Of a stretch of 64,000 bases of DNA, positions 8,765 to 63,122 are shown piece by piece. Made by a program: the position numbers and the translations under genes. Under the pieces are notes generated by a model. That model did no database searches, was not told the origin of the DNA, and saw nothing but the letters and a program-made list of their open reading frames with translations. The stretch spans positions 4,588,001 through 4,652,000 of the forward strand of contig JAWNGF010000002.1 in assembly GCA_037039685.1 (NCBI GenBank). The letters run 5' to 3'. The DNA comes from Ceratobasidium sp. AG-K (lineage: Eukaryota; Basidiomycota; Agaricomycetes; Cantharellales; Ceratobasidiaceae). Numbering within the stretch: the stretch's first letter is position 1; the number at the start of each line of letters is the position of its first letter.

Positions 8765-10027
8765 CTACTTTTGTGCAATCCATTCCTTAATTGCAATCCA
8801 GCCTTCCCATTCTGCTAGCACCCTCATGCCTCCTTCAAGCTGCTTGTTACAAGGGTCCCACTTGGCCTGTTTGAAGCCTTGCTCTTGTTGGCACAAGTGT
8901 TGTAGCACCTGGGTGCATTGGCACTCTTGTTCAATGAGGTGGGCTTGCTCTTGGTTGACCCATTCCTGTTGGCACACATTGCACCAGTGCTTGAGTCCCA
9001 GGGGGGACATGATTCCCCTTTGGACAGCCTTGTATGCTCACACACCTGCTCATCACATGGCATTTGGTCCCAGGCAGGGGCCAGGGAGTCTCTTCAAGGT
9101 CTTGCTTAGCTTCAGCAAGTAGCTGCTTGATCCGTCCTTGCACTTGTGCCACTGCCTCATTGAATTGTTCTTCCAGAAGGCAGCAGTTGGTGGGGATCTC
9201 AAGGAGAGGAGGCAATTCATTGCCCCCAGGGGAGGGGACAGGGACCATGGGCACAAGGGGGGTCCCTAAGGACTGCTGCATAGGAGGGTTGGCTGGTGGG
9301 AGCTCCCCAAAAGGGGGCTGGGCAGGTGTTGGGATGGTGCAGGGTCCCCAAGTCATTTGACTACTTATGGCCTGCTCAACAGCAGGCCACTTGTTGTTGG
9401 CTTTAGTGGTAGTCAGGGGCCATGAGTAGTTGTCAGTTAGGAAGGGGTTAGGCATACCTGGTTTGGGTTTAGGGATTTGATATCCCATCCTGACTTGGTG
9501 TCCAGTTCTGTCCACATCCATGCAACTCTGTCCTCCCATTGCTTGGCTATGTTGTGAAGGTGGGGATCCTGGACCCCCTTCCACCATCCATCACTGCGCC
9601 ACTTATGCCATGTGTCAATGTTCCAGCTGTTGGTGCTTTTGAGGCCCTCATTGTGGACAGTGTGGACAATGCAGCCCTAGCAGGTATACAATTTGTGCCA
9701 CATGATTGTGGCTTGGTCAAGGGGCTTGGTTTCTGGGTTGCCAACCCAAAGGAGCACCCCATAGTTAGGGAGCTGCATTGATTCTTTGTCTTTGAACCAC
9801 CTAAGGGGTCCTTGTGCCTTGATGGGGATGTACCCCAGTCTACAGCCAGGGTTGAGGAGCTCAGCAAGCTCCTTTGCCTCCTGGAAGGTCCAGGGGGCCG
9901 TGTTGTGGTTGTGGAAGGCATACTCACCAGGCCCAGCAAGACAGAGGCCACAGCTGAAGGCCATGGTGGAGGCATTGGCCCTGCAGGCAGTGCAGATGGT
10001 GGCCTTGGAGGCTTGGACAGCAAGCAT
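8765..10027 (-). pseudogene. Third ORF of M, decayed, Trp-rich
   Basis: Region between chromodomain and 3' LTR, about 1.2 kb, too long for a mere linker. From ATG 10027 it reads TICTACRANASTMAFSCGLC (Cys pairs) and LRWFKDKESM; after a stop at 9677 the same frame continues with a Trp-rich tract (WNIDTWHKWRSDGWWKGV, KQWEDRVAWMWTEL). 9010-8765 gives another Trp/Gln-rich helix. Clear similarity to ORF3 of Y was not found, only shared Trp richness and location. A purine tract (AAAGGGAGGGCAA) follows before the LTR. Confidence 0.5.
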
Positions 10028-10089
10028 GTTTGAGGAGAAAAAGATTGTTGGGTGTGGTTGGGCGAGCTGGTTAGGGTGAGCTGAGTAGG

Positions 10090-11384: not shown

Positions 11385-11833
11385 TGTCGTGAGCCATGCT
11401 CCCACCATCGGACTCGTCTACGTCTCGTCCTTCCTCTTGTGTTTGTTCTTTGTCTTTCTTTCATGCCGCGTTGCCCCCTTCTTGTGGTTATGTGTTACAC
11501 TGTGTAACGCGGCTGTGCTTTGTAGGAGTCATGTCTGTTCATACAGCATGACTCACATGGACACTCCTGATTGGTAGACTGTTATGACTCTTGTGGCTGC
11601 GCTCTGTATGACTCGGCCATGTCTTGATTATATATAGAGGACCAACAAGCCTGGAAACCCCAGCTTGTTTTGTCTCGTCAAACATCCCCTTTGAGTGCCA
11701 CTCTGAACCACCCCTACCCTCGAGAGCCTACAGACGCTTAAGTGTGTTGCGGTTCAAGAGGTCACTTAGGTCTTAGTGCCGTCCACTCTCCATCGCGGCT
11801 TGTTTCATAGCCACCAAGAAGAAGCTTACGACA
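11385..11833 (+). repeat. 5' LTR of Y
   Basis: 449 bp, TGTCGTGAGC...CTTACGACA, identical by eye to 18152-18600. TATATATA at 11629-11636 is the likely promoter. Confidence 0.96.
11629..11636 (+). promoter_or_regulatory. TATA box in 5' LTR of Y
   Basis: TATATATA. The segment AGCTTGTTTTGT begins 33 bp downstream, at the expected distance for transcription start. It is this segment that is complementary to the primer-binding site. Confidence 0.7.
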
Positions 11834-11835
11834 TT

Positions 11836-11847
11836 ACAAAACAAGCT
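11836..11847 (+). other. Primer-binding site of Y, self-priming type
   Basis: ACAAAACAAGCT, two bases after the LTR, is the exact reverse complement of 11662-11673 within the LTR. In the Tf1 family the mRNA 5' end folds onto such a site to prime reverse transcription. The same relation holds in Y2, E1, M and Q, and with one G:U pair in P. Confidence 0.72.
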
Positions 11848-11862
11848 TAACAACATACAACC

Positions 11863-13860
11863 ATGTCTATTCAAGAAGATGGAGGGTCACGCCCCTCATC
11901 CTCCATATCAACAAGAAGAGGACCCAGTCGGGCAGCAAGGCCCACAGGATCACTAAACGAACAAGATATTGCACAAACTCAAGCGGGAGGTCCCGCCCGA
12001 TCACGCCCTCAAAGTCAAGCATCAATGCCGGGATCTTTCGGCATTGCTGACATGACAACCGTACAAGAGGAAGAACCCACTATCACAAATAGAGAACCAG
12101 GAGATCTTACAAATGACCCCACTCCAGCTGTAATTCGCATTTCAACTGGAAGTCCAGGACCATCACGTCCCTTGTGGCCATCAGGGATTAGAAGACAGTT
12201 CTTTTCTCCCCAACCCGAAGCTCATGGGGGTGTGTCGCTTGTTCCCATTAGACCCCCACCTACACCACACATTCCCAATGTCCCCACAGTCCCTCAAATT
12301 GGAGGAACCATCACCAACGCAGGACCAATCCCAATGGCTTCCCAGCCAGTCACACCAGTAATTCCAGCACCACCATATGTCCCACAGGGTTACTCCCAGC
12401 GACCAGCTCCGGTACAGCAAAGCACCGGTGATCCAGGAAGTTCAAGTTCAAGTTTCAGCTCCAGCGCCAGAACTGTAATCAGTAACCTAGACGACCTGGA
12501 CGACCTTCTAGAAGGAAGACACAACGCCACCCTTAGGGTTATAGACAGAATGAGGGTCACCATAGATCGAAGGCTTAGCGGTCTAGAACAAGCTACACAA
12601 GTCCTAGCAAACAACCAGCAAATCTTCAATGACTCCATCAACACCCTACAGGGCACCCTGACAGACATTCTGAACCCGGCAAGAAACGGCGAACATAATT
12701 CCTTCCTAGTTGGTCAAGACGTAACCCGCCTTTGAAATGAGGTCACCAACACTCAAGGACTAGTAAACAACGTACGCGAAGAACTCAACACTACCAGACA
12801 AGGGCAACTCGAATGGAACGAGGCAGTAACACAAGGACTAGAAACTCTACGACAGGAAGGAACCTCCTTCACTGCCAAAATCACGGAAGTTCAGGAAGCT
12901 ATCAACAATATGCGAGAAGAAATGGACGAAGCATCTCTGCACGGGATCCCCTCTAGACGATCAAATTCTCCACCACACCCAGACGCGGAATCTACCAGGA
13001 TCGACGAATTAGAATTAAGAATCCAACGACTGACCGAGAACCCAAACATTGGTAGCGGTTCACGCCGTCCCAAGGTGACTCGTCCAGAAGCCTTTGACGG
13101 AAAGAAAGGAGAAGGTGCCGAAATGTTCATCACACAAATGGAGAGCTACTTTTTACGCCTAGGCGATCAATACACTTCCAACGAAGAAAGGATCCGCGAA
13201 GCTTTAGCAAACTTCAAATCCGAAAACAAGGCCGCCACTCACTGGGCACAAGTACTCTTAAGATCGCTTAACCAAAGGGAAAACAACCAAAACCTCGCCT
13301 CATGGGAAAGTTTCAAGGCACACTTCATGGAACAGTTCAGTGACCCCAACAAAAAAGCTAAAGCCGAATCGGACATCCGAAAATGCAAACAGAACAATTC
13401 AGTAGCAAACTATGCGTCGGAGTTCCGATACCTTCTGGTAGACGTAAATTGGGGACAGGAAGCTCTAATCAACCAATTCAAGGAAGGATTGAAATCTGAA
13501 GTCAAAACCGAACTAGCTCGTTTCGAACTAACCCTGATCAACGAAGATGGGACAGAACGAGAATTATCCCTTGACCGATGGATATCAATCGCAATCTCCA
13601 TTGATCAGAAACTACAAGCAATCAAAAACACGACAGGGAAGAAGACAGCAACAGCATCCTCTAGCTCTACAAAGAGACTCCCAGACGAGGTTTACAAGGC
13701 CAGGATTGCCTCGAAACACTGCTTGAAGTGCGGATCAGACAAACACATGCTTGCCAAGTGCCCAGAGAAGGAATGGAAAAAGGAGGAACCTAACCTCAAA
13801 GGAAGGGAAGGAAAAATGGAGGAAGAATCCGAATCGGGAAAAGGTGAGGTCTCCCTCTAA
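11863..13860 (+). CDS. gag: gag of Y (one in-frame TGA)
   Basis: 666-codon frame from ATG 11863 to TAA 13858-13860, broken only by TGA at 12733-12735, where Y2 has Arg (AGA). The N-terminal third is Pro/Ser/Thr-rich and disordered. A helical segment follows (ITEVQEAINNMREEMDEASL), then the capsid-like Retrotrans_gag core (about 13075-13600; MEQFSDPNKKAKAESDIRKC, LINQFKEGLKSEVKTELARF) and a zinc knuckle CLKCGSDKHMLAKC (CX2CX4HX4C). Pol starts 2 bases after the gag stop in the -1 frame, so pol could be made by frameshift or reinitiation. The stop may be real or an assembly error. Confidence 0.9.
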
Positions 13861-13862
13861 CC

Positions 13863-16800
13863 ATGTGTGGAGAGACCAACGAACCAGTAATGGAAACAAT
13901 GTACCTTAGAGCTACTAGCGAATCGACAATTGTTTACACAAAAATTACTGGAATCACGGAACCCATTGCTACTCTCATTGACTCAGGAGCATCAAGGAAC
14001 TTCGTCGACATCACTTGGGCACGAAGAAATAAAGTGGCCCTAATTGAACTGCCAACACCCAGGAAAATCATTGGAATCCAAGGGAAGGAACTGTCACATC
14101 AAATCCGATTCAAAGCAAATCTGGAATTTGAGTTACATGGAAAAAACTTCAAGCAAAACTTCTTCGCCATGCCTACTGGAGATACACACCTGATTCTAGG
14201 GTTAGAATGGCTAGAGGAAGCCAATCCAATAATCGATTGGCTATCGAAAGAAATTTCCTGGCGACCAGACAACATCCTTGGAAAAGCCGCAGAAATCGAA
14301 GACATACCTAAAGAATTCAAAGATTATGCAGAAGTCTTTAGTGAAGAAAAGTTTAAACGGATACCAGACCATCACCCATACGACTGTTGCATTGATCTGG
14401 TGGAAGGATCAGAACTTCCTAAACCGCCTAGGCCAATACCACTCTCACCCGCGGAATCCATAGCTCTCAGAAAGTACCTAGATGAGGAACTAGCAGCAGG
14501 CAAAACCCGACCGAGCAAGTCACCTGTAGCCGCAGCAACCTTCTTTGTCAAAAAGGGACAAGACCCAAAGGACCCGGAAAAACCTCCAGAACTCAGGTTG
14601 GTTCAACATTTTGGTCCGATCAACGAAATAACAAAAGACGACCGCTTCCCTATGCCACTGATGGAAGATCTTCTTGACAAGATCAAGGACGCAAAAATCT
14701 TTTCTAAAATAGACTTGCGTATGGGATTCAACAACATCCGAGTTAAGGAAGGAGATGAATGGAAAACAGCATTCCGAACCAAGGAAGGCCTATTCGAATA
14801 TATTGTCATGCCCTTCGGACTAAAAAACGCCCCAGCAACTTTCCAACGATATATGAATCATATTTTCCATGACCTAATTGACATCTGTGTCATTGTCTAC
14901 ATCGATGACATATTAATTTTCTCCAAGGACCGAAGCCAGCACGTGGAGGATGTTCAAAAGGTACTCAAAATTCTGTTGGACAACAACCTCTTTGCGAAAC
15001 TCCCGAAATGTGAATTCTTTGTCAAGAAACTTGTCTACACAGGAATAAATATCAGCGAGGAAGGGATATCAATGCAAGAGGAAAAGGTCAAAGCAATCAA
15101 AGAGTGGAAGGAGCCAAGGACAGTCAAACAGGTCCAAGCCTTCCTAGGATTTGCAAACTTTTACAGGCGATTCGTACCAAACTTCAGCGGCCTAGCGAAA
15201 CCCTTAACCATTCTAACAAGAAAGGACCAGAAATGGAAATGGGAAGTAGAACAACAAGAGGCCTTCGATAACCTGAAAGGGGAAATATGCAAGGAACCAT
15301 TACTGCGACACCCAGATCCAACAAAACCTTACGTATTGGAAACCGACGCAAGCGGCGTTGCTATGGGATCAATACTCTCTCAAAGACAAGACGACGGTTA
15401 CTTACATCCCATTGCTTTCCTTTCAAAATCCTTCAACGCTGCACAAATGAACTACAATGTTCACGATAAGGAACTAATGGCAATTGTGGAATCACTAAAA
15501 CACTGGCGATTACATCTGGAAGGAACTAGAGAACCGATAACTATCTACACTGACCACCGTAACCTGCAATACTGGAAGAAGGCAACTACGTTTAACCGAC
15601 GTCACGCTCGATGGCATCAAATCCAGGCTTCCTACAACTTTGAGATAGTTTACCGTCCGGGGAACATGTCAACAAAGCCAGACCTACTATCCAGAAGAGC
15701 GGATCATAGCGAGATACCAACAGCAGAGCAAATCATGATCAAAGAGGAACAGTTCAAAGGATTTGCCGGAGAAGTCAAGACAGACATCATTGCTGACATT
15801 AGGGAAGCACAAACCGAAGACAAGAGCATCAGGAAGATCATAGAATTGTGCAAAGACAAGGAGACCCTACCCAAATCCGTGCAACAAGGAATTAGGAACT
15901 ACAACTTCGAGGAAGACCTTCTCTGGATAGATGGGAGAATCTACGTGCCAGAAGACAAGGACACTCGGCTGAAGATACTCAGATTTCACCATGATTCACC
16001 AATAGCAGGACACCAGGGTCAAGCCCGAACGCTAGAGCTTATCTCAAGAAAATACTACTGGCCTGGACTTAAGGCAACAGTAAACAAATACGTTGATTCT
16101 TGTGAACAGTGCCAAAGGGCGAAAGGAACAAAAACCCAAGTACCACTAAAAGCGCTCGAAATCCCGAACAGTCCGTGGGAGGACATCACATACGATTTCA
16201 TCATAAAACTTCCAAAATCACAGGGCAATGACAGCATTCTAGTAGTAGTGGATCGGTTCTCCCGCATGGCACACTTCATAGCCTGCAAAGAATCAACAAC
16301 TGCAGATCAACTTGCCGATCTTTTCCTGAAGAACATTTGGAGATTACACGGCTTCCCACGGAGTACGGTTTCGGACAGAGGAACAACTTTCAACAGCAAG
16401 TTCCTGAAGGCCCTCTACCAAAAAATCGGAACGACACCCACGTTCAGCACGGCATATCATCCACAAACAGATGGAATAACGGAACGGATAAACCAGTGGA
16501 TAGAAGCATGGCTTTGTACATTTGTTAACTACAGGCAAGATAACTGGGCCGAACTGCTTCCCATTGCAGAATTCTGCTACAACAACCAACAACATGGGAT
16601 CACGGGAAAAACCCCATTCGAGATTGTGAACGGCAGGGAACCACTATGGAATGTTCTAAGAGAAGCTACTACGATTCCTGAAGCAGATAACAAAGCAAAT
16701 AACTGGCAGGAAGTATGGGATGAAGCAAAAGCAGCTATGGAATGGCACAGAAGAAAGGACACAGTGGAACACCAACCAAAATACAAAGAGAACGACCTTG

Positions 16801-17729
16801 TCTGGCTTTTCGGACAAAACATAAAGACAAACCGCCCCAACAAGAAACTTGACAACAAGAAACACGGTCCCTTCAAAATCAAGAAAATCATATCAAGCCA
16901 CGCCTACGAATTGGAGCTTCCAAAAACCATGAGAATACACCCTGTGTTCCACAGCGATCTTCTTAGTCCGTACAAAAAAGACGAGAACTTCCACAGAAAC
17001 CAACCCCGACCACCGCCAATCACAACAGAAGAAGGAGAAGAAGAATACGAAGTGGAGAAAATCGTGGACTGGAAGGAAACAAAGGACGGGTTGTTCTACA
17101 GGGTCAGATGGAAGGGTTATGATGAAAAAGAAGATACGGAACAACGGGCAGAAGATTTCGGTCACCTCGGAGTAGTAATGAAGAAGTTCTTGAGGGATTT
17201 CCCAAACGCCCCAACACCATCAAACTACAAGACAAGAAGTATTAAAGGGAGGGCGGAGCGGGACGACAACGCAACTTGCAGAACTTGCCCACTTTCCAAC
17301 TCACTCTACACACTCTACGCACTTAACCTTTTTTGCACAACATGCCCGCCATCACCCGTGCCACGATCGCCAACAACCTTGTCCGCGTTCTCAACGGACC
17401 AGCCTTCCAGACGGCTCGCATCCTTGACTCGGGAGCAGCCCTCTACGTCTTCAAAAGGTCCCAGCAGAGTCCAGGGCGCCTCCAATTCCGTGCTTCCGAC
17501 GACGTCCTACACTCCGACCTTGGAGAATTCGAATGGGTCGGCAAGAAATGGCCAACACGCATGCAACTCCAACGAAAGGACATCTACGTATGCCGAGGAT
17601 GTGCGGCCTTCCAGGTGTCCGAAGTCATCCTGCTATCCATGCACAAGCTCGGGGTGGTCGAATGGGGACAAGAAGGAGCTTACAGCAGCGAATGGGTGCC
17701 AGGATATGAAGGTTGCCCGCCTACTCTAA
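13863..17729 (+). CDS. pol: pol of Y: protease-RT-RNase H-integrase-chromodomain
   Basis: 1288 residues, fully open. Protease LIDSGAS with catalytic Asp about residue 40. RT motif A FSKIDLRMGFNNIR, and YIDD at 346-349. RNase H LETDASGVAMGS, then NYNVHDKELMAI and YTDHRN. Integrase zinc finger HHDSPIAGHQGQ...CEQCQ, catalytic core with D (YDFIIKLP), D (TVSDRGTTF) and E (ITERINQWIEA). GPY/F module KKHGPFKIKKI, then chromodomain EEEYEVEKIVDW...YRVRWKGYDEKEDT. The ATG lies 2 bases after the gag stop. The last 130 or so codons run past the chromodomain and overlap ORF3 (17342) in another frame; this tail is Ser/Thr/Pro-rich and poorly conserved compared with Y2, so it is probably incidental. Confidence 0.95.
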   Translation: MCGETNEPVMETMYLRATSESTIVYTKITGITEPIATLIDSGASRNFVDITWARRNKVALIELPTPRKIIGIQGKELSHQIRFKANLEFELHGKNFKQNFFAMPTGDTHLILGLEWLEEANPIIDWLSKEISWRPDNILGKAAEIEDIPKEFKDYAEVFSEEKFKRIPDHHPYDCCIDLVEGSELPKPPRPIPLSPAESIALRKYLDEELAAGKTRPSKSPVAAATFFVKKGQDPKDPEKPPELRLVQHFGPINEITKDDRFPMPLMEDLLDKIKDAKIFSKIDLRMGFNNIRVKEGDEWKTAFRTKEGLFEYIVMPFGLKNAPATFQRYMNHIFHDLIDICVIVYIDDILIFSKDRSQHVEDVQKVLKILLDNNLFAKLPKCEFFVKKLVYTGINISEEGISMQEEKVKAIKEWKEPRTVKQVQAFLGFANFYRRFVPNFSGLAKPLTILTRKDQKWKWEVEQQEAFDNLKGEICKEPLLRHPDPTKPYVLETDASGVAMGSILSQRQDDGYLHPIAFLSKSFNAAQMNYNVHDKELMAIVESLKHWRLHLEGTREPITIYTDHRNLQYWKKATTFNRRHARWHQIQASYNFEIVYRPGNMSTKPDLLSRRADHSEIPTAEQIMIKEEQFKGFAGEVKTDIIADIREAQTEDKSIRKIIELCKDKETLPKSVQQGIRNYNFEEDLLWIDGRIYVPEDKDTRLKILRFHHDSPIAGHQGQARTLELISRKYYWPGLKATVNKYVDSCEQCQRAKGTKTQVPLKALEIPNSPWEDITYDFIIKLPKSQGNDSILVVVDRFSRMAHFIACKESTTADQLADLFLKNIWRLHGFPRSTVSDRGTTFNSKFLKALYQKIGTTPTFSTAYHPQTDGITERINQWIEAWLCTFVNYRQDNWAELLPIAEFCYNNQQHGITGKTPFEIVNGREPLWNVLREATTIPEADNKANNWQEVWDEAKAAMEWHRRKDTVEHQPKYKENDLVWLFGQNIKTNRPNKKLDNKKHGPFKIKKIISSHAYELELPKTMRIHPVFHSDLLSPYKKDENFHRNQPRPPPITTEEGEEEYEVEKIVDWKETKDGLFYRVRWKGYDEKEDTEQRAEDFGHLGVVMKKFLRDFPNAPTPSNYKTRSIKGRAERDDNATCRTCPLSNSLYTLYALNLFCTTCPPSPVPRSPTTLSAFSTDQPSRRLASLTREQPSTSSKGPSRVQGASNSVLPTTSYTPTLENSNGSARNGQHACNSNERTSTYAEDVRPSRCPKSSCYPCTSSGWSNGDKKELTAANGCQDMKVARLL

Positions 17730-18106
17730 GGCCTCGATGGAACAATGCATGGGACAAGAACTTCGAGGCGGACTTAGCGGATTGGAGGATGGAGCGGGGA
17801 CGATACCAGAGAGAGAAGTTCGAGTGGAAGCCATTCTGGTGGCAGGAGAAGGATGCGGACTTATCGGAATGGAAAGAGGCCGAGCCAGACATACGACAAT
17901 GGGACAAGAACCATGTGGAGGAGCAGGAGAGGGTCATGGACTGGTCCAAGGCGGACTGGACGGACGACAAAACCTGGGAGAGGTGGGAGGAGCACTGTGA
18001 CAAACCAGGTAACACGGCGTTCAACCCCATCGATCTTACGGAGGAAGAAGAGGACGAGGTTGACTCCCTGGTCGAGAAGGTCGAGAAGGACTGCTGGGTG
18101 CAGTAA
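17342..18106 (+). CDS. ORF3 of Y, conserved protein of unknown function
   Basis: 254 residues, placed between pol and the 3' LTR where retroviruses keep env, but with no signal peptide or membrane segment. N-terminal half has RILDSGAALYVFKRSQQ and a CxxC pair (YVCRGC, Cys 84 and 87). The middle is very Trp-rich with a 10-15 residue spacing (WNNAWDKN, ADWRMERGRYQ, WKPFWWQEK, WSKADW, WERWEEH). The C-terminus has NPIDLTEEEEDE (about 228-240), resembling a SUMO-interacting motif, and ends KDCWVQ. Start chosen at ATG 17342, matching the ATG of Y2 ORF3 at 41683; both are exactly 255 codons. About 80% identical to Y2 over the N-terminal half. Overlaps pol by 388 bp in the -1 frame. I know no described family for it. 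Confidence 0.82.
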   Translation: MPAITRATIANNLVRVLNGPAFQTARILDSGAALYVFKRSQQSPGRLQFRASDDVLHSDLGEFEWVGKKWPTRMQLQRKDIYVCRGCAAFQVSEVILLSMHKLGVVEWGQEGAYSSEWVPGYEGCPPTLRPRWNNAWDKNFEADLADWRMERGRYQREKFEWKPFWWQEKDADLSEWKEAEPDIRQWDKNHVEEQERVMDWSKADWTDDKTWERWEEHCDKPGNTAFNPIDLTEEEEDEVDSLVEKVEKDCWVQ

Positions 18107-18151
18107 ATCGGTCCTTTCGGGTTCCCCTCAAGGACCTTAAGGGGGGAGTAA

Positions 18152-18600
18152 TGTCGTGAGCCATGCTCCCACCATCGGACTCGTCTACGTCTCGTCCTTC
18201 CTCTTGTGTTTGTTCTTTGTCTTTCTTTCATGCCGCGTTGCCCCCTTCTTGTGGTTATGTGTTACACTGTGTAACGCGGCTGTGCTTTGTAGGAGTCATG
18301 TCTGTTCATACAGCATGACTCACATGGACACTCCTGATTGGTAGACTGTTATGACTCTTGTGGCTGCGCTCTGTATGACTCGGCCATGTCTTGATTATAT
18401 ATAGAGGACCAACAAGCCTGGAAACCCCAGCTTGTTTTGTCTCGTCAAACATCCCCTTTGAGTGCCACTCTGAACCACCCCTACCCTCGAGAGCCTACAG
18501 ACGCTTAAGTGTGTTGCGGTTCAAGAGGTCACTTAGGTCTTAGTGCCGTCCACTCTCCATCGCGGCTTGTTTCATAGCCACCAAGAAGAAGCTTACGACA
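18152..18600 (+). repeat. 3' LTR of Y
   Basis: Identical by eye to 11385-11833. Preceded by the polypurine tract AAGGGGGGAGTAA and followed by the duplication AGCCT. Confidence 0.96.
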
Positions 18601-28100: not shown

Positions 28101-28713
28101 AGACAACCTGGAGGAAGCCAAGGATAGCCTCATCCTGAGCAAGGAACAGGACAGGGAATATGTGGATTGGAAGTGTTGGGAAGATTCCTTCATCATAGGC
28201 AATAAAGTTTGGCTCAGCCACAATCATATCACAACCAATCCACTGTCCTTGAAACTCTTGCATAAATGCCTTGGACCATTCACAATTCTGGAAGCAGTAG
28301 GAAGGAATGCATATCGACTGGAACTCCAACCTTCCATGAGCATGCACCTGGTGGTCAACATCTTGCGACTGGCCAAGTATGAGGAGGACAAGATTGAGGG
28401 TTGCCATGTGGAACTGCCCCCTCCTATAGAAATACCTGAAGGGGAGGAGGAATGTGAGGTCAAAAAAATACAGAGCTCCAGGATCAAGAAGGGAGTTTTG
28501 GAATACTTTGTCAAGTGGAAAGGTTACACTTTGGAACATGATTCTTGGGAACCTTTGGAAAACCTGGCAACGCATCAGAACCCATTAAGGAGTTCCATCT
28601 GGAACATCCCAAAGCCATCATGGAAGTCCCCAAGATTACCAGGAAGCGGAGCCATGAGGAAACAAAGGATGACTTGGCGGCCAAATGGCCCATTAGGCAT
28701 TCTAAGCATATAA
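25192..28713 (+). pseudogene. pol: pol of P, decayed
   Basis: Protease 25192-25446 (MIDSGTSGNFINSE), then a frameshift near 25430. RT and RNase H 25766-26959 with YIDDILIFSK intact, but motif A reads FTKLNLKSG where E1 has FTKLDLKSG, so the first catalytic Asp is lost. Stop at 26957 where an Arg is expected. RNase H tail 26972-27172. Integrase 27191-28000 with HHDNKAVGHMGQ...CNLCQ; the second core Asp is kept (VVSDCRPTF). Chromodomain in 28162-28713 is of classic form: YFVKWKGYTLEHDSWEPLEN. Several stops lie between 28000 and 28162. Confidence 0.9.
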
Positions 28714-28843
28714 AAGAGGCGGCCAGGATCCAAGTCCCTCATCATAAAGTTTTCACTTTTCTCCCTACCACACTAAAACCACCTCCTACCCTTCCTTCAT
28801 TCACTATGCAATTTCCACTTCTACCCTCTCCCCCAACACCTGC

Positions 28844-29278
28844 ATGGTCCGCATCTACCAGGACCTCTATACATGCTTGGCCTCCTTCAAGCGGACGCTT
28901 GAAGCCATCCCCCCCCTCAAAAACAGCCAGTATAGGCACCCTGGGATGCAGCAGGCGTTCTACTTCATCATTGGAGCTCACTCACGTCACTGCCACCCCC
29001 CTTGTTTGTTTGTTGGCCACCCCCTCGCCCAGTGGAACAACTGGATTGCCCACAAGGCCCAGGACATCCACAATGCCTGGGAAATCATGGACACCTCCAG
29101 GCGTTCCAGGCTGGGTCTCCAAGACCCCTTCCAGGTCATTGACCTCACCAAGGGTCCTGGGTGCAAGGAGAACGTCTGGCAAGGTACTGGAACAGCAGAG
29201 GACCCTTTTGTGTTGAACAATGAGGAGGAGTTTGTTTTGGTTAGTTGCAGGTGGTCTGTTTTGTCCTGCGCAGAATAA
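28844..29278 (+). CDS. ORF3 of P, 144 residues, unknown function
   Basis: Open frame between chromodomain and 3' LTR, ATG 28844 to TAA. Reads MVRIYQDLYTCLASFKRTLE, then AQWNNWIAHKAQDIHNAWE, and near the end FQVIDLTKG followed by acidic LNNEEEF. Only the IDLT segment and Trp pattern recall ORF3 of Y; overall homology is not evident. A second frame, 28545-29216, overlaps it and continues from pol. It remains open although gag and pol are broken, but at this length that could be chance. Confidence 0.5.
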   Translation: MVRIYQDLYTCLASFKRTLEAIPPLKNSQYRHPGMQQAFYFIIGAHSRHCHPPCLFVGHPLAQWNNWIAHKAQDIHNAWEIMDTSRRSRLGLQDPFQVIDLTKGPGCKENVWQGTGTAEDPFVLNNEEEFVLVSCRWSVLSCAE

Positions 29279-33803: not shown

Positions 33804-34569
33804 ATGTCTGCTGCTTGTTGTTCTGTCACCACCAGCAAACCCCCTTGGGTCACAGGCACAGCCCAAGAAATTGCCAAGTGATTCAACTCAGGTGTCATAT
33901 TGTACCATGTCCCACAATGCATGCAGCATCCAGGTCAATGCTAATACTATCATGGGGGCAATGTGCTCCACTTGGCAGCAGCAGGAGAGTTCAAATGGGT
34001 GGGACACAAACTGCCCATGAAGCACCAACTCAGGGAGTGTCCCAGCATCTTGTTCCCAAGGGGGGTGTGGGCTTCTCTGCCCAGGAGGCAAACCTGGGAT
34101 CAGTCAAGAAAGCAACAAGCAAGGAGTGGGGGATCACTGCATCAACAACCCCCATGTATGGCAGTCCAAGTGGATATGGGAGGAGAAGGAGGGAAGGGTG
34201 TGCCTATGCAACAAATGGAAGTGGGATGTGGCTTGGGACCAGGACTTGAAGGACTGGATGGAGGATCAAGGTTGATGGGCCAAGGAGATCAAGTAGCAGC
34301 CATAGTGGTGGGACAACAGTCCCAATCCAGACCAATGGGCGGAAAGGGAGGGTTCACCAACAGAGTGGATGCCAGAGGAAGAGAGGGTCTGGGTCAAGGA
34401 CCAGCCCACCTGGGAGGAAGGGTGCAATGACATGCCCATTGAGTTGAAGGAAGAGGTGGGGGACTCAAGGGAGAACCCCATATGTGTGGAGGGAGATGAG
34501 GAGGCAATTTGGTCCTAGGGGGACAAAGCAGCCTTTGAAAAAATGGTGAACAATTGTAAATTACAGTAA
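33804..34569 (+). pseudogene. Third ORF of R (ORF3 relic)
   Basis: Sits between the chromodomain and the 3' LTR, exactly where Y and Y2 carry ORF3, and spans 766 bp against 765 in Y and Y2. Frames are broken, but parts align: GEFKWVGHKLPMKHQL with GEFEWVGKKWPTRMQL of Y; MPIELKEE with NPIDLTEEE; and the end EKMVNNCKLQ with EKVEKDCWVQ. It is therefore a decayed member of the same family. No known function. Confidence 0.65.
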
Positions 34570-41682: not shown

Positions 41683-42447
41683 ATGCCCACTGTCACCCAC
41701 TCCACTATCACCAACAACCTCATCCGCGTCCTTGAGGGACCAGCCTTCCAGATGGTACGTATCCTGGACTCAGGAGCCGCCCTCTACATATTCAAACGCT
41801 CCCAACAAGGTCCGGGACGCATGCAATTCCACACATTGGACGACGTGCTCCACTCAGACCTGGGCGAATTCCAGTGGGTGGGAAGGAAATGGCCAACCTG
41901 GATGCAGCTGCAGTGGAAGGACATATTTGTGTGCAGAGGATGTGCCACCTTTCAAGTCTCAGAGGTCGTGCTGTTGTCCACCCACATGCTCAGGGTGGTG
42001 GAATGGGGCCAAGAAGGGGCCTACAGCAGCGAATGGGTCCCTGGATACAAAGGGAGGCCACTGTCTCTGAGACCCCAATGGAACAACGCATGGGATGCGA
42101 ACTTCGAGAAGGACCTGGTGGACTGGAGGATGGAGAGGGGGCGCTACCAAAGGGAGAAGTTCAAGTGGAAGCCATACTGGTGGCAGGAGAAGCATGCAGA
42201 TGTGTCACAATGGAAGGAGGGAGAGGGGGACGTATGACAGTGGGATAAGGAGTTTGTGGAGGAGCAGGGGAGGATTTTGGACTGGTCTAAGGTGGACTGG
42301 ACAAAGGAGGAGACATGGGAAGAGTGGGAGAAGTTCTTGGATGAACCAGGCAATACTGTGTTCAACCCGATTGACTTGACCATCAAGGAGGATGAGGGGC
42401 TGGAAGAGCACATGCTTGCCAAAATCAAGGATTGCGAGTTCCAATGA
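41683..42447 (+). pseudogene. ORF3 of Y2, one stop
   Basis: 255 codons, identical in length to ORF3 of Y, with one TGA at 42235-42237 where Y has Arg (DIRQW). Keeps LDSGAALYIFKRSQQ, the CxxC pair (FVCRGC), the Trp-rich block (MERGRYQREKFKWKPYWW), NPIDLTIKEDEG and the end KDCEFQ. Much better conserved with Y than the overlapping pol-frame reading, which supports ORF3 as the frame that was under selection. Confidence 0.78.
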
Positions 42448-44281: not shown

Positions 44282-44697
44282 TGTCCCGACTTGGGTCAAT
44301 TAGGTGTATAGAAGGTTAAGGGGTTCAACTTGGACAAGTCTTAGAACCCAAGGAGTAGTGATAATAAAGAGTAGTTGATTTAGCAAGTCCTAGTGGAGAG
44401 GAGGTCAAGCCTTGTCATTAACCGGCTTGACCTCTGGGTTTATATACATGAGGGATCAGTGCCACGTCATCAACTATCAGTGTGAGAAAGCCAAGTACAA
44501 CCGATGATAAGTGAGATAAGAGGTATGACTCAACTTTCTGGAAGTTCCGGAAGCAGCACCAATATCAAATGAAAAGACAAATACATCACATGATACAAGT
44601 TTAAGCGCCAGAGGACATTTGTACTAAAAAAGGAAAGTGTTCGGAAAAAAAGATATAAAATCACAATAAAATGTCTGAGCTTAGTCAGCTCATGACA
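44282..44697 (-). repeat. 3' LTR of Q
   Basis: 416 bp, same length as the 5' copy. Ten of eleven differences from it fall at CpG/TpG/CpA positions. The minus-strand polypurine tract TTAGGAGGGGGTAA precedes it. Confidence 0.94.
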
Positions 44698-44707
44698 TTA
44701 CCCCCTC

Positions 44708-47700
44708 CTAAGGGCCTGGTGTGGTGGGGTGGAGTCTGTGAAATTTATCAACTAGTTCAGGAGCATTCTTGAGGTCTTCCTTTGATTGCCAAGAATTGTC
44801 TGCATGAGAGTATCCTTTCCATTTGACGTAATATTGGAGTTGACGGCAAATTTTCTTGGAATTAAGGATCTCCTTGACTTCCCACTCCTCTTCTCCTTCT
44901 TGTGTGAGAATAGGAGGTGGTTGAGCGGGTTCGCAACCGTGGGGATCAGAGTGAAATTTCTTGAGCAGCATGACATGGAAGACAGGATGAATCTTCATTG
45001 ATTTTGGTAACTCCAGTCTAAAGGCGTGAGTCCCTACTTTTTCCAGCACTTTGTAAGGGCCTAAAACTTTGTGGGAGAGTTTTACTGAAGGTCTATCTGT
45101 GGATATGTTTTGATGACTAAGCCAGACTTTATCTCCAGGGTTTATCTCTTCTGGTTCTTTGGCTCCTTTATCAAAGTAGTGTTTGTAGGATTGGTTTGCT
45201 AGAATGAGAGCGGCTTTGACTTCATCATATCCTTTCAACAGGAATTCCGCGTGGACATCAGCTTCAGGAACAGTATAGTCTGATTCTTCCCTGATGTTCA
45301 TTCTGGGGTTGAAACCTTGGCAGATCTGGAAAGGGGTTTTGCCAGTGGATGCTTGGATTCCATTGTTGTAGGCAAATTCTGCCATAGGGAGTAGGGCTAC
45401 CCAGTTGTTTTGCCTATGGTTGACAAAAGCCCTGATAAAAATTTCAACAACCTGGTTTGCCTGTTCTGACTGTCTGTCTGTCCTTGGATGGTAGGCTGTG
45501 CTGAAGGTGGGTTTTACATCCAACTGTTTGTACAGATGCTTAATGAACTTTGAGTTGAAAGTGGATCCTCTATCCGAGACTGTTGCTTTTGGGGTACCAT
45601 GAAGTTTCCAAATGTTTGCGACAAAGATATTGGCTATATCTACTGCTGTGGCCATTGATTTGCAAGGGAGTTAATGTGCCATCTTGGAGAACCAATCTAC
45701 AACTGTCAAGATTGCATCATATCCTTCTGACTCTGGGAGCCCTACAATCATGTCGTAGGAGATCTCTTCCCAAGGTCTCTCAGGAATATGTAAAGGACGC
45801 AGTAGTCCTGTGGGAAGTTGGTTCAATGGTTTAACTCAAATGCATGTTTTGCAGTGTGACACATAAGAGTTGACAAATTTCTTCATGGTTGGCCAGTAGT
45901 AAGTTCTTGAGACCAATTCCAATGTTCTTGCTTGTCCCAGATGCCCAGCTGTAATATTGTCATGGCACAATTCCAATATCAGGTTTCTGACTGTTTCATC
46001 CTTGGGGACAAAGATCTTCCCTTTGAACATTAGGAGTCCTTCTTTGTATTCCCAATCTTTGACTTTTTCTCTGTTTCTCAGCTTATTGTGAGCTTCCTCT
46101 AATCTGGGATCTTCAAGGATTGCTTCTCTGATTAGGTCGTTAATCTCCTGGTCAGGGGTAATAGCCAAAATGAAAATGTCTGGTTTGAGGAGAACTTGGT
46201 TCTCTACCCCCCCCCCCAAAGGTTCTAGGTCGTATCGCCTCAAGAGAATGTCTGCTTTTTTATTCTGGTTTCCTGGCCTGTACATGATTTGGAAGTTGAA
46301 GTCCACCAAGAAGTTCATCCAGTGGATTTGGCGTTGGTTCAGTTGTTTGGATGATGAGAAGTATTCCAAATTTTTGTGATCTGTTATAACTTGAATGGCT
46401 TTTTCTGTGCCTTGAAGTAAGTGCCGCCATTCCTTGAAGGCTCTAATAATTGCCAATAGTTCTTTGTCGAAAATGTCATAGTTTTGTTCAGCTGGATTTA
46501 GCAATTTGGAAAGGAAAGCTACTGGGTGTAATTTCCCTTCTTCATCTTTTTGAGATAAAACTGCTCCCGTGGCAAACCCTGACGCATCTGTCTCAAGGAA
46601 AAACTCCTTATTTTGATTGGGCTGCATCATTACAGGTGCGACCTTAAGAGCTTCCTTTAGTGCATTCATGGCGTCTTGTTCTTTACTTGTCCACTGCCAC
46701 TTTTGATCCTTCTTGAGTAGGTTGTATAGAGGTCTGGCTTTGCCAGCAAAGTCTTGAATGAATCTTTGATAGAAATTGATGAATCCTAGGAACTCTTGAA
46801 CTTGTTTAATGTTCTTGGGTGCTTTCCAATTCATAGCCGCCGTGACCTTTTCCTGATCCATTTCAATTCCCTTATTGGAAATGACCAGTCCCACCCAGTC
46901 CAGTTTGGTTTGGTGGAACTTGCATTTCCTCAGTTTCGCAATCAACTTGTGTTCCCTTAGTCTTTTCAGCACCTCCTTGACATGTCCTGGATGATCTTCG
47001 ACTTGTTTGGAAAAAATGAAGATATCATCAATGTATACGAGTACAAAAACCCCCATAATGTCCCTGAATATAGAGTTCATTAGGGACTGGAAGTTTGATG
47101 GGGCGTTTTTGAGACCAAAGGGCATGACTTTCCATTCATACATGCCGTACCAAGTTTTGAAGGCTGTTTTCCATTCATGTCCTGCCGCTATTCAGGTTTG
47201 ATGGAATCCTTGTGCCAAGTCCAGAGTGTTGCCAATGACAAATCCTTCCAGGGCCTTTAACCATTGATCCAGTAGAGGGATTCCGCTCGCATTGAATTTG
47301 CACAGCAAATTCACATATCTATAGTCAACGCAAAAGCATAGCTCTGGGTTGTTTGGATCTTCTGGATGGGGTTTTTTGACGAATAGAACCGGTGATGCTA
47401 AAGGAGACTTGGAAATTTGAATGTGTCCCCTTTGGATGAGGGTTTCCAGTACTTTCTTCATTTCTTTGTCTTCAGCTGGGGACGTTTTGTAAATAGGGCC
47501 ATGCTTTAATTTGGCTTCTGGTAGGAGGTCCAGTGTAATGTTGGTTGGTCTGTGAGGTGGGAGTTCTTCCAATCTAGATTCATCAAATACATCTGCAAAC
47601 TCCTTGTATTCTTTGGGTAATGTGGTTTCAGCTGCAATCTGGAGTGTAGATGGGACTTCTAGGCAGTTTTTTGAGCAGAATTTGCTTGTGCATGCAATTG

Positions 47701-48109
47701 TCCTATTTTTCCAATTAATTTGTGGGTTATGTTTCTTGAGCCATGACATCCTGAGTATGATGGGGTGTCTTCCAATGTTTGTGACATGACATTCTATTTC
47801 GCTGGAATGTGTTCCCATGACAAGTTTAAATTTGGTATAGTGGGTGACCTTTCCAGACGAAACTTCTTGCCCATCTATAACTCGCAGAGTCTTTGGTTTT
47901 TCGTGTTGAAAAAGGGGAAGGTTTGCTTCTTTTGCTAGGGAAGGGTTGATGAAGCAGGAGGTTGCGCCGCAATCAAGGAGTGCTTGTCCAGAGAATTTTT
48001 TTGCTTTGTTAACTGACTTAGAATCAGGAGCCATAGCTAGTGGATGAGCGGTGAAATCAAGGTATAATTGGTTTTCATTTGATATTGACATGATTTCTAG
48101 TTCATCCAT
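44708..48109 (-). pseudogene. pol: pol of Q: protease-RT-RNase H-integrase-chromodomain, three stops
   Basis: One frame throughout, interrupted by TGA just below 47195 (HQT-stop-IAAGHEW), TGA near 45836 (CKTCI-stop) and TAA near 45671. Protease LLDCGATSCFINPS; RT NTLDLAQGFHQT (motif A intact), VLVYIDDIFIFSK; RNase H FLETDASGFATGAVLSQ; integrase zinc finger HDNITAGHLGQ...HCKTC; core TVSDRGSTFNS; chromodomain YVKWKGYSHADNSWQSKEDL. Ends at 44708, eleven bases before the 3' LTR, so no third ORF can fit. Confidence 0.9.
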
Positions 48110-48144
48110 ATTACTAGCTAATATATCACCAAGTACTTGGCTCC

Positions 48145-49497
48145 TTAATAAGCCTCGGTGACGTCTTTTCCCGACTCAATGTCTGAAGAGATTTCTTCAA
48201 TCTGGGCTTCAAACCCTGAGGCTGTGTTCTTGGAAGGACAAACTCTTGCTGAATGTCCCTTGCTGCCACAGGTGAAGCAGATCATGGGTGTCTTTCCCTT
48301 GCCATCAAGATCCATTGCATTGGGGTCTTTAGCAGGAGTAGATGTCTTGGGCGTTTGGGTTGTGGGAGTAATGAAGGCAGTGGTTCTGGTGTCCTTTTGA
48401 ATTGCTCCAAACAGAACATTTCCATCAGTTCCATCATCCCAGGAAATTTGTGGAACTGGGCAACCCTTGGCGTTTCTGGTAATGCTTGAGATTTTGCCGT
48501 ATTGCACCCCTCCTGTAGGTTTTGACATAAAGACGCGGTCATTTACATTGAATCTTTGCCCTAGCACTGTGCTCGGGGTGCTTGTAGCTGCCTTAGACGT
48601 GGCTTGTTTTGAAGTGCTACTTTGCAGATTTTGGGTCTTCTTGGGTGCATTGATGGCGTTCATTGTGGAATTGATTTCCAAGGCTCTTTCGCGGACTTGG
48701 TTGAAGGTTCTTGTTGCTTCATGGGGTTTAAAGTTTTGTGATACCATGGCCATCTTGATTTCGTCTTTTAGACCATCATAGAAATCATCACGGAGTACTT
48801 GGTCGATGTATCTGAGTACTGATGAATAAGTGATAAAGTCTCAAAGATAGTCTTGGACTGAATTCTTTTGGATCAGCTTCTTGTATAGTTGCCTGAAGCA
48901 ATCGATCTTGTGAATGTCACCAAACCTGGCTTGCATTTCATTCCAGAATTCGTCTATATCATGTAGCCAATTTGTTGCTCCCCTTTGTGCTGTGTCCACA
49001 TCGATTCCCAGTTGCATCCATACGTAGGCGGGTCCTTTGCAATAACCCACGATGTAGGTGATTTTCTGTTCTGTGGTTGCTTGTGGGGATGTGTGGTTTA
49101 TGTACAAGGTACATTGTGATTTAAATTCATTGAATTTGTCCATATCTCCAGAGAATTCTTCTGGGGGGTGCATTTTGAGTTTGTACCCTGGGGTGGTTGT
49201 TGACGTGGTGGTGGAAGGTGTTGCACCCAGGTTTGTAAGTGACTGAGACACCACATTCATTAATTGGTGAAGGGGTGCGATTTGTGCAGTTTGATTCTGA
49301 ATTGCAATGATATCTGCAATGTTGTTGTCAATTCCCTGTTCTAGGGTAGAGGTGATACCATTTAAGGCATTAATGTGGCCGTTAATTTTTCAGACTTTGT
49401 CTATTAAAGCATTAATTGCGTGTGCAACTACATCGGGTCCAGATGTTGCCAAAATCTGGGTAAATCCCCCTTGACTGGGTGATGGGGCTCTTGACAT
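48145..49497 (-). pseudogene. gag: gag of Q (two in-frame TGA)
   Basis: 451-codon frame from ATG 49497 to the stop at 48145, broken by TGA at 49390-49392 and 48841-48843. The Retrotrans_gag core spans about 49200-48750 (MHPPEEFSGDMDKFNEFKSQ, AYVWMQLGIDVD). Then a linker with DRVFMSKPTGGVQYGKIS and a zinc knuckle CFTCGSKGHSARVC. Otherwise open. Confidence 0.88.
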
Positions 49498-49714
49498 ATA
49501 GGGCAGGGAAAAAAGATTTATTGGGATCCGAGGCCGTACAAAATATTGCGGATTCTTCTCTGAACCTTTCTATCTTTAATGAAGTGCAAACTTTTCAAAA
49601 ATACCAATTCAAGATTTTTGTCTTCCAAGAACAACATGTTGATTACTCCTAGTTTGTTGTACTGTTTGTATATGTAGTTACGATGAATGTCTTCAATAAA
49701 GAGTTTTAGGGATT

Positions 49715-50329
49715 CTAGTCTAAGCTGTTCCCTGTGTTGTTCTTGTGTGAGTCAAGGTCTTGGTCCCACTGAAAAGGGTTGGGTGCAATGGTATTAAGGT
49801 GATTTAGAAGGTGGTAATCCTGGTTAATAGGAATACACACTTCTGCTGCGAGATGACAGTATTTGCCCTTGATTTTGTCCTTAAGGGTTTTGATCATGCG
49901 CCACTGACGTTTATCGTTGTTGATGAGGTTTTCGACCTTCTGAGTATGTTTTTCTTGGATTTTAATAAGTTGGTCGCAATTTTCAATCAGGACACGGGTT
50001 TGTTCTTGTAGGCGCTTGACTTCGATATTGGTGTCAGCTAGGTTTATGCTTTGGACACAATCTTGATTGGCTTGTTGCTTGTTTGTGTTGTCGATGTTTA
50101 TTTTGATGAACTCAAGCCTTGAATGAAGTGCTTGATAATTGGCTTCAAGTTGATTGTGGTTTTTGTTGTTCCTGGTACGTTTGACCCTTAGTTCCTCTAC
50201 TTGTTCGACTTGATCTTCTTCTAGTACCTCAATTTGACTGTTTAATTTGTCGACTTTAGTGTCTAGATCAAGTACAAAGTCCTTTAGTCTAAAGACTGCT
50301 TTGCAGAGGCTAAAAAATGCGGGGAACAC
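49715..50329 (-). CDS. Upstream coiled-coil ORF of Q (ORF0)
   Basis: 204 residues, intact, about 480 bases after the 5' LTR and 218 bases before gag, in a different frame from gag. Nearly all predicted helical and coiled coil: VDKLNSQIEVLEEDQVEQVE, RLEFIKINIDNTNKQQ, QEKHTQKVENLI. The C-terminal 50 residues lose the heptads (NPFQWDQDLDSHKN). N has a recognisable relative at 6825-7214. No signal peptide or catalytic motif. Possibly a split N-terminal Gag domain, as E1 and P gag begin with a similar helical part; this is inference. Confidence 0.7.
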   Translation of the reverse strand: MFPAFFSLCKAVFRLKDFVLDLDTKVDKLNSQIEVLEEDQVEQVEELRVKRTRNNKNHNQLEANYQALHSRLEFIKINIDNTNKQQANQDCVQSINLADTNIEVKRLQEQTRVLIENCDQLIKIQEKHTQKVENLINNDKRQWRMIKTLKDKIKGKYCHLAAEVCIPINQDYHLLNHLNTIAPNPFQWDQDLDSHKNNTGNSLD

Positions 50330-50810
50330 TCTTAAGGTTAATTAGTTAGTTACTAATTAATCCTTTTTTAGTGCGTACTGATGGAAACAACGAGTTGATT
50401 TGGTTCTTGATGGGTGTGAGTGTTAACTTGAGTGGTGCTCTGACCACTTTCCAGGTTGACTTGAGAGGATCTGGCTTCCTCAAGATGTTGATTTGGATGT
50501 GAAGGGTGCTAGACACTAAGCTTTTGCTTTATATACTCCTTATCTGATCTTATCAATTATCAACAGCCTTGGGCAGGCGTGATAGTGACAGTGTATGACA
50601 GAGTAAGGGTGTATTTAGCTGACTAAAGCCGCTATGACCCGAAAGAGGATAACAATTGGGTTCACTGACAGCGTATAGCAACATGGGACTACTGGTCTAT
50701 ATCAAGTATAGCTCGTCGTCCGTTGTACTATGCCTGTTTTCCCATGTACGTTCTATCTACTTGGTGGAAGAGCAGGGGCTTAAGGCTGATGCTAGAAAGG
50801 CTTGACCTAA

Positions 50811-51226
50811 TGTCCCAACTTGGGTCAATTAGGTGTATAGAAGGTTAAGGGGTTCAACTTGGACAAGTCTTAGAACCCAAGGAGTAGTGATAATAAAGAG
50901 TAGTTGATTTAGCAAGTCCTAGTGGAGAGGAGGTCAAGCCTTGTCATTAACCGGCTTGACCTCTGGGTTTATATACATGAGGGATCAGTGCCATGTCATC
51001 AACTATCAGTGTGAGAAAGCCGAGTACAACCAATGATAAGCGAGATAAGAGGTATGACTCGACTTTCTGGAAGTTCTGGAAGCAGCACTGATATCAAATG
51101 AAAAGACAAATACATCACATGATACAAGTTTAAGTGCCAGAGGACATTTGTACTAAAAAAGGAAAGTGTTCGGAAAAAAAGATATAAAATCAGAATAAAA
51201 TGTCTGAGCTTAGTCAGCTCATGACA
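50811..51226 (-). repeat. 5' LTR of Q
   Basis: Minus-strand ends TGTCATGAGC and TTGGGACA. On the plus strand, AGGTCAAGCCTT at 50931-50942 is the reverse complement of 50797-50808 just inside the element (12/12): the presumed self-primer. A TATATAAAC box sits about 30 bp upstream in transcription sense. Confidence 0.94.

Positions 51227-60260: not shown

Positions 60261-63122
<2,862 letters not shown>

What the first reader, a model, noticed from the sequence alone, without database searches (positions are those of the whole stretch)
17342..18106. A conserved third ORF (ORF3) in chromodomain Gypsy elements, with a SUMO-motif-like tail
Y (17342-18106) and Y2 (41683-42447) carry an ORF of exactly 255 codons between integrase and 3' LTR; R (33804-34569) carries a 766-bp relic. 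All three share GEF-WVG, a PI-D/E-L segment followed by acidic residues, and an ending of K/N-D/N-C-x-x-Q. Y and Y2 also share a CxxC pair and a dense Trp array. Canonical SUMO-interacting motifs are a short hydrophobic core plus acidic residues, and PIDLTEEEEDE fits. An element-encoded protein that binds SUMO could help target silent chromatin or escape silencing. I know of no description of this family.
Basis: partly seen in the sequence, partly recalled or inferred. Interest (0 to 1): 0.88.

Follow-up and report, generated by a model that had tools for sequence, protein, structure and literature searches.

The report
Retrotransposon third gene with SUMO-reader tail
Jumping elements in this (likely fungal) genome carry a conserved third gene that starts about 100 bases after a TATA-like signal, which would give it its own promoter, and ends in a short motif predicted to grip the host's SUMO tag, so it likely helps the element deal with host chromatin.

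Summary
The ORF is real. Y ORF3 (17342-18106) is intact; Y2's copy has an in-frame TGA and R's is frame-broken. The own genome lists 149 matches of 74% identity or more. In 30 copies plus Y2 the median dN/dS is 0.10 for ORF3 and 0.12 for the nearby end of pol, and codon periodicity switches frame at the ORF3 ATG. R-type is a full-length homologue, E4-type shares a WVG...GC segment, E3-type is a different ORF at the same place. New here: in all four types a G-poor leader precedes the ATG, and a TATA-like box lies at -102 in 30 of 30 Y and 9 of 11 E3 copies; in Y it is the longest invariant stretch in 1200 nt upstream. The frame relation to pol differs between types, so frameshifting cannot be the general route. 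The tail PIDLT-acidic fits a published SUMO-interacting pattern; FNPIDLT is encoded at 528 places, control 0; 8 of 10 E3 rows have VIDLT and/or IIDLT. SUMO binding, promoter and function are untested. The CxxC pair is not conserved in R-type; the fold prediction was uninformative.

The parts
11385..11833 (+). 5' LTR of element Y (449 bp, identical to the 3' LTR; TSD AGCCT on both sides)
12910..13860 (+). gag (Retrotrans_gag)
13863..17729 (+). pol open frame (protease, RT, RNase H, integrase, chromodomain); its last 388 nt overlap ORF3 and show no protein-level constraint
17046..17156 (+). chromodomain match in pol (residues 1062-1098)
17237..17248 (+). AAGTATTAAAGG, TATA-like box (TATTAAAGG at -102 from the ORF3 ATG); longest invariant run in 1200 nt upstream among 30 copies; candidate internal promoter
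17267..17341 (+). G-poor leader immediately before the ORF3 ATG (median G 8% in 30 Y copies against 23% elsewhere)
17342..18106 (+). ORF3 (P0001, 254 aa, TAA stop)
18026..18058 (+). PIDLT + EEEEDE: SUMO-interacting-motif-like tail (residues 229-239)
18139..18148 (+). AAGGGGGGAG, polypurine-tract-like stretch before the 3' LTR (label from recall)
   Evidence: sequence printed
18152..18600 (+). 3' LTR of element Y
41683..42447 (+). Y2 ORF3, 255 codons with an in-frame TGA at 42235
33804..34569 (+). R-type ORF3 relic, frame-broken; relatives with a full open frame exist elsewhere in the genome (L046, L051)
28709..28716 (+). TATAAAAG box before E3-type ORF3
   Evidence: C2:4616709
28844..29278 (+). 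E3-type ORF3 of the third element (VIDLT at about 29135-29149); the upstream start Met of its relatives reads Ile in this copy
9677..10027 (-). E4-type ORF3, first part, of the minus-strand element into which Y is inserted
44282..51226 (-). comparison element: chromodomain Gypsy whose pol ends at 44708, 10 nt from its LTR, with no room for an ORF3

Best explanation
ORF3 is a conserved third gene of these chromodomain Gypsy elements that is likely transcribed from its own internal promoter in the end of pol and makes a small accessory protein predicted to bind SUMO through a conserved PIDLT-acidic tail. Shown: it is a protein-coding gene under purifying selection; its coding signal starts at a conserved ATG; its relation to the pol frame varies between types; in Y and E3 a TATA-like box sits at a fixed place before the ATG, and all four types have a G-poor leader; the tail motif is conserved in Y. 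Inferred: a separate capped mRNA starts between the box and the ATG; the N-terminal part (WVG...GC) and the acidic Trp-rich middle bind an element component or a host chromatin factor; the tail docks on SUMO-marked chromatin proteins. Together with the chromodomain this would steer integration to SUMO-rich silent chromatin or blunt SUMO-dependent silencing.
For: Selection: ORF3 dN/dS median 0.10 (465 pairs, 30 top copies + Y2; ratio of means also 0.10), against a median of 0.12 for pol 761-1390 (450 pairs; ratio of means 0.22); the pol-tail frame over the overlap gives 1.36 and the third frame 2.06. Diversity periodicity flips from pol phase to ORF3 phase at the ATG. E3 (11 loci) and E4 (14 loci) ORF3 give 0.27 and 0.29, other frames 0.88-1.31. 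Family: Y~R full length, hhalign probability 99.4, E 1.8e-21; Y~E4 residues 24-103, probability 93, E 3e-7. Expression: TATTAAAGG at -102 in 30 of 30 Y copies, and [TA]ATAAAAG[AG]GG at -102 in 9 of 11 E3 copies, one more at -120. AAGTATTAAAGG is the longest invariant run upstream and holds the only run of 4 invariant pol third positions among 400. Median leader G is 6-8% in the four types against 23% elsewhere. Pol minus ORF3 frame is +1 in Y (30 of 30), E3 (10 of 11) and E4 (9 of 14, 5 unreadable), but +2 in 12 and 0 in 2 of 15 R copies; the pol stop lies from -79 to +1180. Motif: PIDLT = published SIM pattern [PILVM][ILVM]DLT, which had the highest precision (81%, at 8.6% sensitivity) of the nine motifs compared in that paper; it appears in at most 0.4% of shuffles of 14 proteins. 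PIDLT is kept in 22 of 25 Y-type proteins (23 of the 30 copies that read full length, plus P0002 and P0003), is the best conserved 7-mer of residues 190-254 as FNPIDLT, and FNPIDLT is encoded at 528 genome places, reversed control 0. P0004, from another organism's record, keeps VIDLTQDDE and IIDLTDEED.
Against: No transcript, binding or localisation data. The TATA-like box overlaps pol codons, and the patterns were chosen after seeing the sequences; it is degenerate in E4 (GATAAAA, 12 of 14, -104 to -116) and R (11 of 15 with a loose pattern, -108 to -114), and in E3 it is only the third longest run. Runs of 4 to 6 invariant third positions also occur inside ORF3 itself, so such a run is not unique to the box. 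Single loci depart from the G-poor leader (maximum 28% G in E3, 25% in R). R~E4 similarity is weak (probability 22). Y and R tails fail the strict hydrophobic-core SIM definition; that definition is met by chance in 20-57% of shuffles of the 14 proteins tested. E4-type has no SIM-like motif in the three frames examined. Among ten E3 rows, VIDLT is exact in 7, IIDLT in 4, neither in 2. The structure model is meaningless (pLDDT 33). A spliced mRNA is not excluded: one AG near -66 in Y is not conserved, but others were not tested.
Confidence: 0.5

Rival explanations
1. ORF3 is a transcriptional activator of the element's own LTR, comparable in role to foamy-virus Tas. The acidic, Trp-rich second half would be an activation domain and the PIDLT tail part of it rather than a SUMO site.
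For: Residues 131-254 hold 13 Trp and 37 Asp/Glu, net charge -18. The candidate internal promoter arrangement resembles foamy viruses, whose internal promoter drives Tas (passage read in PMC3185757).
Against: No DNA-binding domain found (no Pfam match for P0001; none above cut-off for R, E3, E4 and outside relatives; PDB profile hits only at E 0.54 or worse). FNPIDLT is the best conserved 7-mer of residues 190-254.
Confidence: 0.2
2. ORF3 is made from a spliced or otherwise shared pol mRNA and acts as a cofactor of integrase or of the particle; the leader and TATA-like box are by-products of pol coding and of a scanning-friendly leader.
For: In bdelloid rotifers ORF3s are typically separate units expressed from spliced messages (PMC5408684 passage). 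The box overlaps pol codons that read IK(G/E) in Y and E3 (my reading of the sequences).
Against: Candidate 3' splice AG at -66 in Y is replaced in several copies and in Y2. In Y the pol third positions under the box are a run of four invariants, the only one among 400 upstream.
Confidence: 0.22
3. ORF3 is expressed as a frameshift or stop-readthrough extension of pol.
For: In Y, E3 and the readable E4 copies the frame is consistently -1 relative to pol.
Against: Homologous R-type uses another frame (+2 in 12, 0 in 2 of 15). A start Met, mostly as MPA, is shared by Y, R and E4. The pol-frame phase signal stops at the ATG.
Confidence: 0.05
4. ORF3 is an env-like protein.
For: Position between pol and 3' LTR; the usual default label for such ORFs (PMC5408684).
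Against: No strongly hydrophobic segment: maximum 19-residue Kyte-Doolittle mean is 1.36, 1.12, 0.75 and 0.53 in one protein each of Y, R, E3 and E4.
Confidence: 0.02
5. The open frame is a chance product of composition.
For: None remaining.
Against: dN/dS and phase tests and copy retention.
Confidence: 0.01

Closest known systems
Fungal chromoviruses (chromodomain Ty3/Gypsy; Novikova et al. 2010, PMC2864245, section 5 read)
   Same: LTRs, gag, PR-RT-RH-IN-chromodomain order; [quoted passage not shown]
   Different: The section says most elements have one or two ORFs; it describes no sequence family, SIM motif, selection test or promoter for the extra ORF. The figure itself was not held, so I cannot say whether its add. 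ORF is related.
ORF3s of bdelloid rotifer LTR retrotransposons (PMC5408684, abstract and passages)
   Same: Extra 3' ORF after pol, several unrelated ORF3 types in one genome.
   Different: Those are GDSL esterase, DEDDy exonuclease, coiled-coil, TM or env-like proteins, reported as typically expressed from spliced messages; here no such domain was found and a TATA-like box precedes the ORF in Y and E3.
Foamy virus internal promoter and Tas/Bet accessory genes (PMC3185757, passages)
   Same: A promoter inside the coding body would drive a 3' accessory gene.
   Different: The foamy virus promoter is experimentally shown and lies in env; here it is inferred and lies at the end of pol; no sequence relation tested.
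SIM-bearing proteins (review PMC8616421, GPS-SUMO PMC4086084, passages)
   Same: PIDLT / VIDLT / IIDLT and PI[VI]LEEE fit published SIM patterns; PIDLT, IIDLT and PI[VI]L are followed by acidic residues.
   Different: No SUMO binding shown; Y and R tails lack the strict three-aliphatic core.

Membership tests
Chromovirus (chromodomain Ty3/Gypsy) | LTRs with TG..CA ends and target duplication | tested here: met
   (449 bp identical LTRs, TGTCG...CGACA, AGCCT duplication)
Chromovirus (chromodomain Ty3/Gypsy) | RT-RNaseH-integrase order with C-terminal chromodomain | tested here: met
   (chromo 4.9e-8)
SUMO-interacting-motif protein | match to a published SIM pattern with acidic flank | tested here: met
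   (PIDLTEEEED; patterns from PMC4086084)
SUMO-interacting-motif protein | strict hXhh/hhXh aliphatic core at the tail | tested here: not met
   not met in Y or R tails; IIDL met in three of four E3 rows shown (not in L031), VIDL and IIDL in P0004
SUMO-interacting-motif protein | non-covalent binding to SUMO | not testable with these tools
   needs a pull-down
Env-like ORF3 | transmembrane segment | tested here: not met
   hydropathy maxima 0.53-1.36 (one protein per type)
Rotifer-type enzymatic ORF3 (GDSL, DEDDy) | GDSL or exonuclease domain | tested here: not met
   no Pfam family above cut-off
Foamy-virus-like internal promoter | promoter element at fixed distance before the accessory ORF | tested here: inconclusive
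   sequence signature only; clear in Y and E3, degenerate in E4 and R
Foamy-virus-like internal promoter | internally initiated mRNA | not testable with these tools
   no RNA data

The most novel reading that the evidence does not exclude
These retrotransposons run a separate SUMO-reader gene from a promoter hidden in the last codons of pol. The promoter-leader cassette is older than the proteins behind it: Y/R/E4-type and E3-type ORF3s share no detectable overall sequence similarity yet sit behind the same box-and-leader layout, and Y, R and E3 converge on SIM-like acidic tails. LTR retrotransposons would thus have evolved a regulated, separately transcribed interface with the host SUMO-chromatin system.
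Probability: 0.35. Interest if true: 0.85.

Novelty: new variant of a known kind. Interest (0 to 1): 0.62.

Why it matters
Extra 3' ORFs in LTR retrotransposons are known, but their functions are often unassigned or assumed to be env-like. Here the extra gene is as constrained as pol, abundant, and has two concrete, cheap-to-test handles: a short SUMO-binding motif and a predicted internal start site. If right, it would link a retrotransposon protein directly to the SUMO system that helps build silent chromatin, and show that an LTR element can control an accessory gene separately from gag-pol.

Tried and rejected
Structure: AlphaFold2 on P0001 with four sequences I judged permitted gave pLDDT 32.9 and pTM 0.21, so no fold search was run. 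Protein look-up: three searches of the 5.8-billion set gave only P0002 and P0003 (metagenome) for Y-type and P0004 for E3-type. Viral contigs: two pattern matches, no relative. PDB profile: best E 0.54, ignored. CxxC zinc site: not supported, because R-type lacks the first Cys. Pol tail as a second constrained overlapping protein: rejected on dN/dS 1.36, although the pol frame stays open somewhat longer than synonymous shuffles give (P 0.019-0.163 in the five of 30 copies tested), which I leave unexplained. Frameshift, readthrough and reinitiation: rejected as general routes. Env-like: rejected. Literature for an earlier description (held library only): none found beyond the 2010 legend; PMC3411680 (Laccaria) had none of the six terms I looked for. 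PMC5741268 mentions SUMO only in its reference list.

Samples: dN/dS for Y used the 30 best copies of 149 listed (781 first-look candidates) plus Y2; codons with stops or gaps were skipped. E3 used 11 of 12 loci, E4 14 of 20 and R 15 of 20, those where the start pattern was found. The protein alignments used 23 of 30 Y copies (seven with an early stop dropped), 10 of 20 R, 10 of 12 E3 and 12 of 20 E4 loci, some of them partial.

Full report
OBSERVATION. The window lies in an unnamed 53.6 Mb genome. Element Y spans 11385-18600: identical 449-bp LTRs, TG..CA ends, target duplication AGCCT, gag, and a pol with protease, RT, RNase H, integrase and chromodomain. ORF3 runs 17342-18106 and ends 45 nt before the 3' LTR. 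The pol open frame runs on to 17729, so ORF3 and pol overlap by 388 nt in different frames. Y2 has the same 255 codons but a TGA at codon 185. R is frame-broken. Y is inserted into an older minus-strand chromodomain element, and a third element lies at about 22.6-29.6 kb. Both have their own ORF after the chromodomain, called here E4-type and E3-type. That the host is a basidiomycete-like fungus is inference; no call names it.

IS IT A GENE? Searching the own genome with the Y protein scored 149 of 781 candidates, all at least 74% identical; 106 of 149 show no stop by my count of the table. In 30 copies plus Y2, diversity upstream is highest at pol third positions. From the ORF3 ATG onward it is highest at ORF3 third positions, already inside the stretch where the pol frame is still open (overlap 0.058/0.024/0.203 at ORF3 positions 1/2/3). 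Median pairwise dN/dS is 0.10 for ORF3, 0.12 for pol 761-1390 and 0.13 for pol 2-1480 (as ratios of means 0.10, 0.22 and 0.29), 1.36 for the overlapping pol tail and 2.06 for the third frame. E3- and E4-type ORF3 give 0.27 and 0.29. A chromodomain element in the same window without an ORF3 (pol ends 10 nt before its LTR) shows that the gene is not universal.

FAMILY. R-type relatives with an open frame (L046, L051) align with Y over the whole length (hhalign probability 99.4, E 1.8e-21). E4-type aligns over Y residues 24-103 around WVG and the GC pair (probability 93, E 3e-7), but R against E4 gives only probability 22. E3-type shows no global similarity to Y or E4 (probability 1 or less), only a weak tail match with R (probability 12, E 0.0025). 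Y, R and E4 proteins mostly begin with MPA. Pfam shows nothing above cut-off and the PDB profile nothing below E 0.54. Outside this genome there are two metagenome proteins for Y-type and one UniRef protein filed under Globodera pallida for E3-type, which may be a contaminant (inference).

EXPRESSION. The frame of pol relative to ORF3 is +1 in Y (30 of 30), E3 (10 of 11) and E4 (9 of 14; 5 had no readable chromodomain frame), but +2 in 12 and 0 in 2 of 15 R copies. The pol stop lies anywhere from -79 to +1180 relative to the ATG. A frameshift, or a reinitiation that needs a nearby stop, cannot be the common route. The 75 nt before the ATG are on average the most G-poor part of the surrounding 2.6 kb in Y, E3 and E4, and nearly so in R (lowest at -90): median 6-8% G against 23%, with single outlying loci in E3 and R. 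TATTAAAGG lies at -102 in 30 of 30 Y copies. A TATAAAAG-type box lies at -102 in 9 of 11 E3 copies, one more at -120 and one without. E4 and R have weaker A-rich variants at -104 to -116 (12 of 14) and -108 to -114 (11 of 15) (patterns chosen after seeing the sequences). In Y the 12-mer AAGTATTAAAGG is the longest invariant run in 1200 nt upstream and contains the only run of four invariant pol third positions out of 400; inside ORF3, runs of up to six occur. So it appears constrained at the DNA level beyond pol coding, but not uniquely within the element. In E3 the box is only the third longest conserved run. A possible splice acceptor near -66 in Y is lost in several copies. I infer an internal promoter; that TATA boxes and G-poor leaders mark fungal transcription starts is general knowledge, not tested here.

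THE TAIL. [quoted passage not shown] in the former the DLT pattern had the highest precision (81%) of the nine motifs listed, at 8.6% sensitivity. In shuffles of 14 ORF3 proteins that pattern appears in at most 0.4%; the R pattern in about 2% of R shuffles. PIDLT is exact in 22 of 25 Y-type proteins, and FNPIDLT is the best conserved 7-mer in residues 190-254 (1 of 59; 12 of 248 overall). FNPIDLT is encoded at 528 places in the genome, in several synonymous spellings among the places listed, reversed control 0. In ten E3 rows VIDLT is exact in 7 and IIDLT in 4 (at least one in 8), the rest one residue off or deleted. The outside relative P0004 keeps VIDLTQDDE, IIDLTDEED and PFVLDD while a middle block is missing. 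Against: Y and R tails fail the stricter core given in the SIM review (PMC8616421 passages; test), and E4 has no such motif in three frames tested.

MECHANISM. I commit to an accessory protein, separately transcribed, that uses its tail to bind SUMO on chromatin proteins. SUMO is reported to promote silent chromatin in yeast, plants and animals (abstract of PMC8131101 in the listing). With a chromodomain on the integrase, an element protein that reads SUMO would help find silent chromatin or interfere with silencing there; which of the two cannot be told from sequence. The acidic Trp-rich middle also fits an activation domain, a main rival.

NOVELTY. Searches of the held library found no description of this family; a 2010 survey draws an additional ORF of unknown function in its element figure (legend only). 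Extra ORF3s as a kind are known (PMC5408684, abstract and passages). I rate this a new variant of a known kind.

Noticed in passing
8931-11219 (-) and 18621-18920 (-): Y is inserted into an older minus-strand chromodomain Gypsy element whose pol pieces flank it on both sides.
   Followed up: partly
17342-17729 and L001-L030: The pol frame stays open for 385 nt into ORF3 in 27 of 30 copies, somewhat longer than synonymous shuffles of ORF3 give (P 0.019-0.163 in five copies), although its protein shows no constraint.
   Followed up: partly
44282-51226 (-): A chromodomain Gypsy with 97.4% identical LTRs and pol ending 10 nt before the LTR: a natural element without ORF3.
   Followed up: partly
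P0004: A UniRef protein filed under Globodera pallida and named 'TLDc domain-containing' is a relative of E3-type ORF3 and has no Pfam match here; possible contamination or misnaming.
   Followed up: no
11863-12735: An open frame of 290 aa without Pfam match sits between the 5' LTR and gag, separated from gag by a stop; Y2 has a similar one (36219-36491 and 36540 on).
   Followed up: no
60399-61100 (-): Vps4-like AAA ATPase exon, probably a host gene.
   Followed up: no
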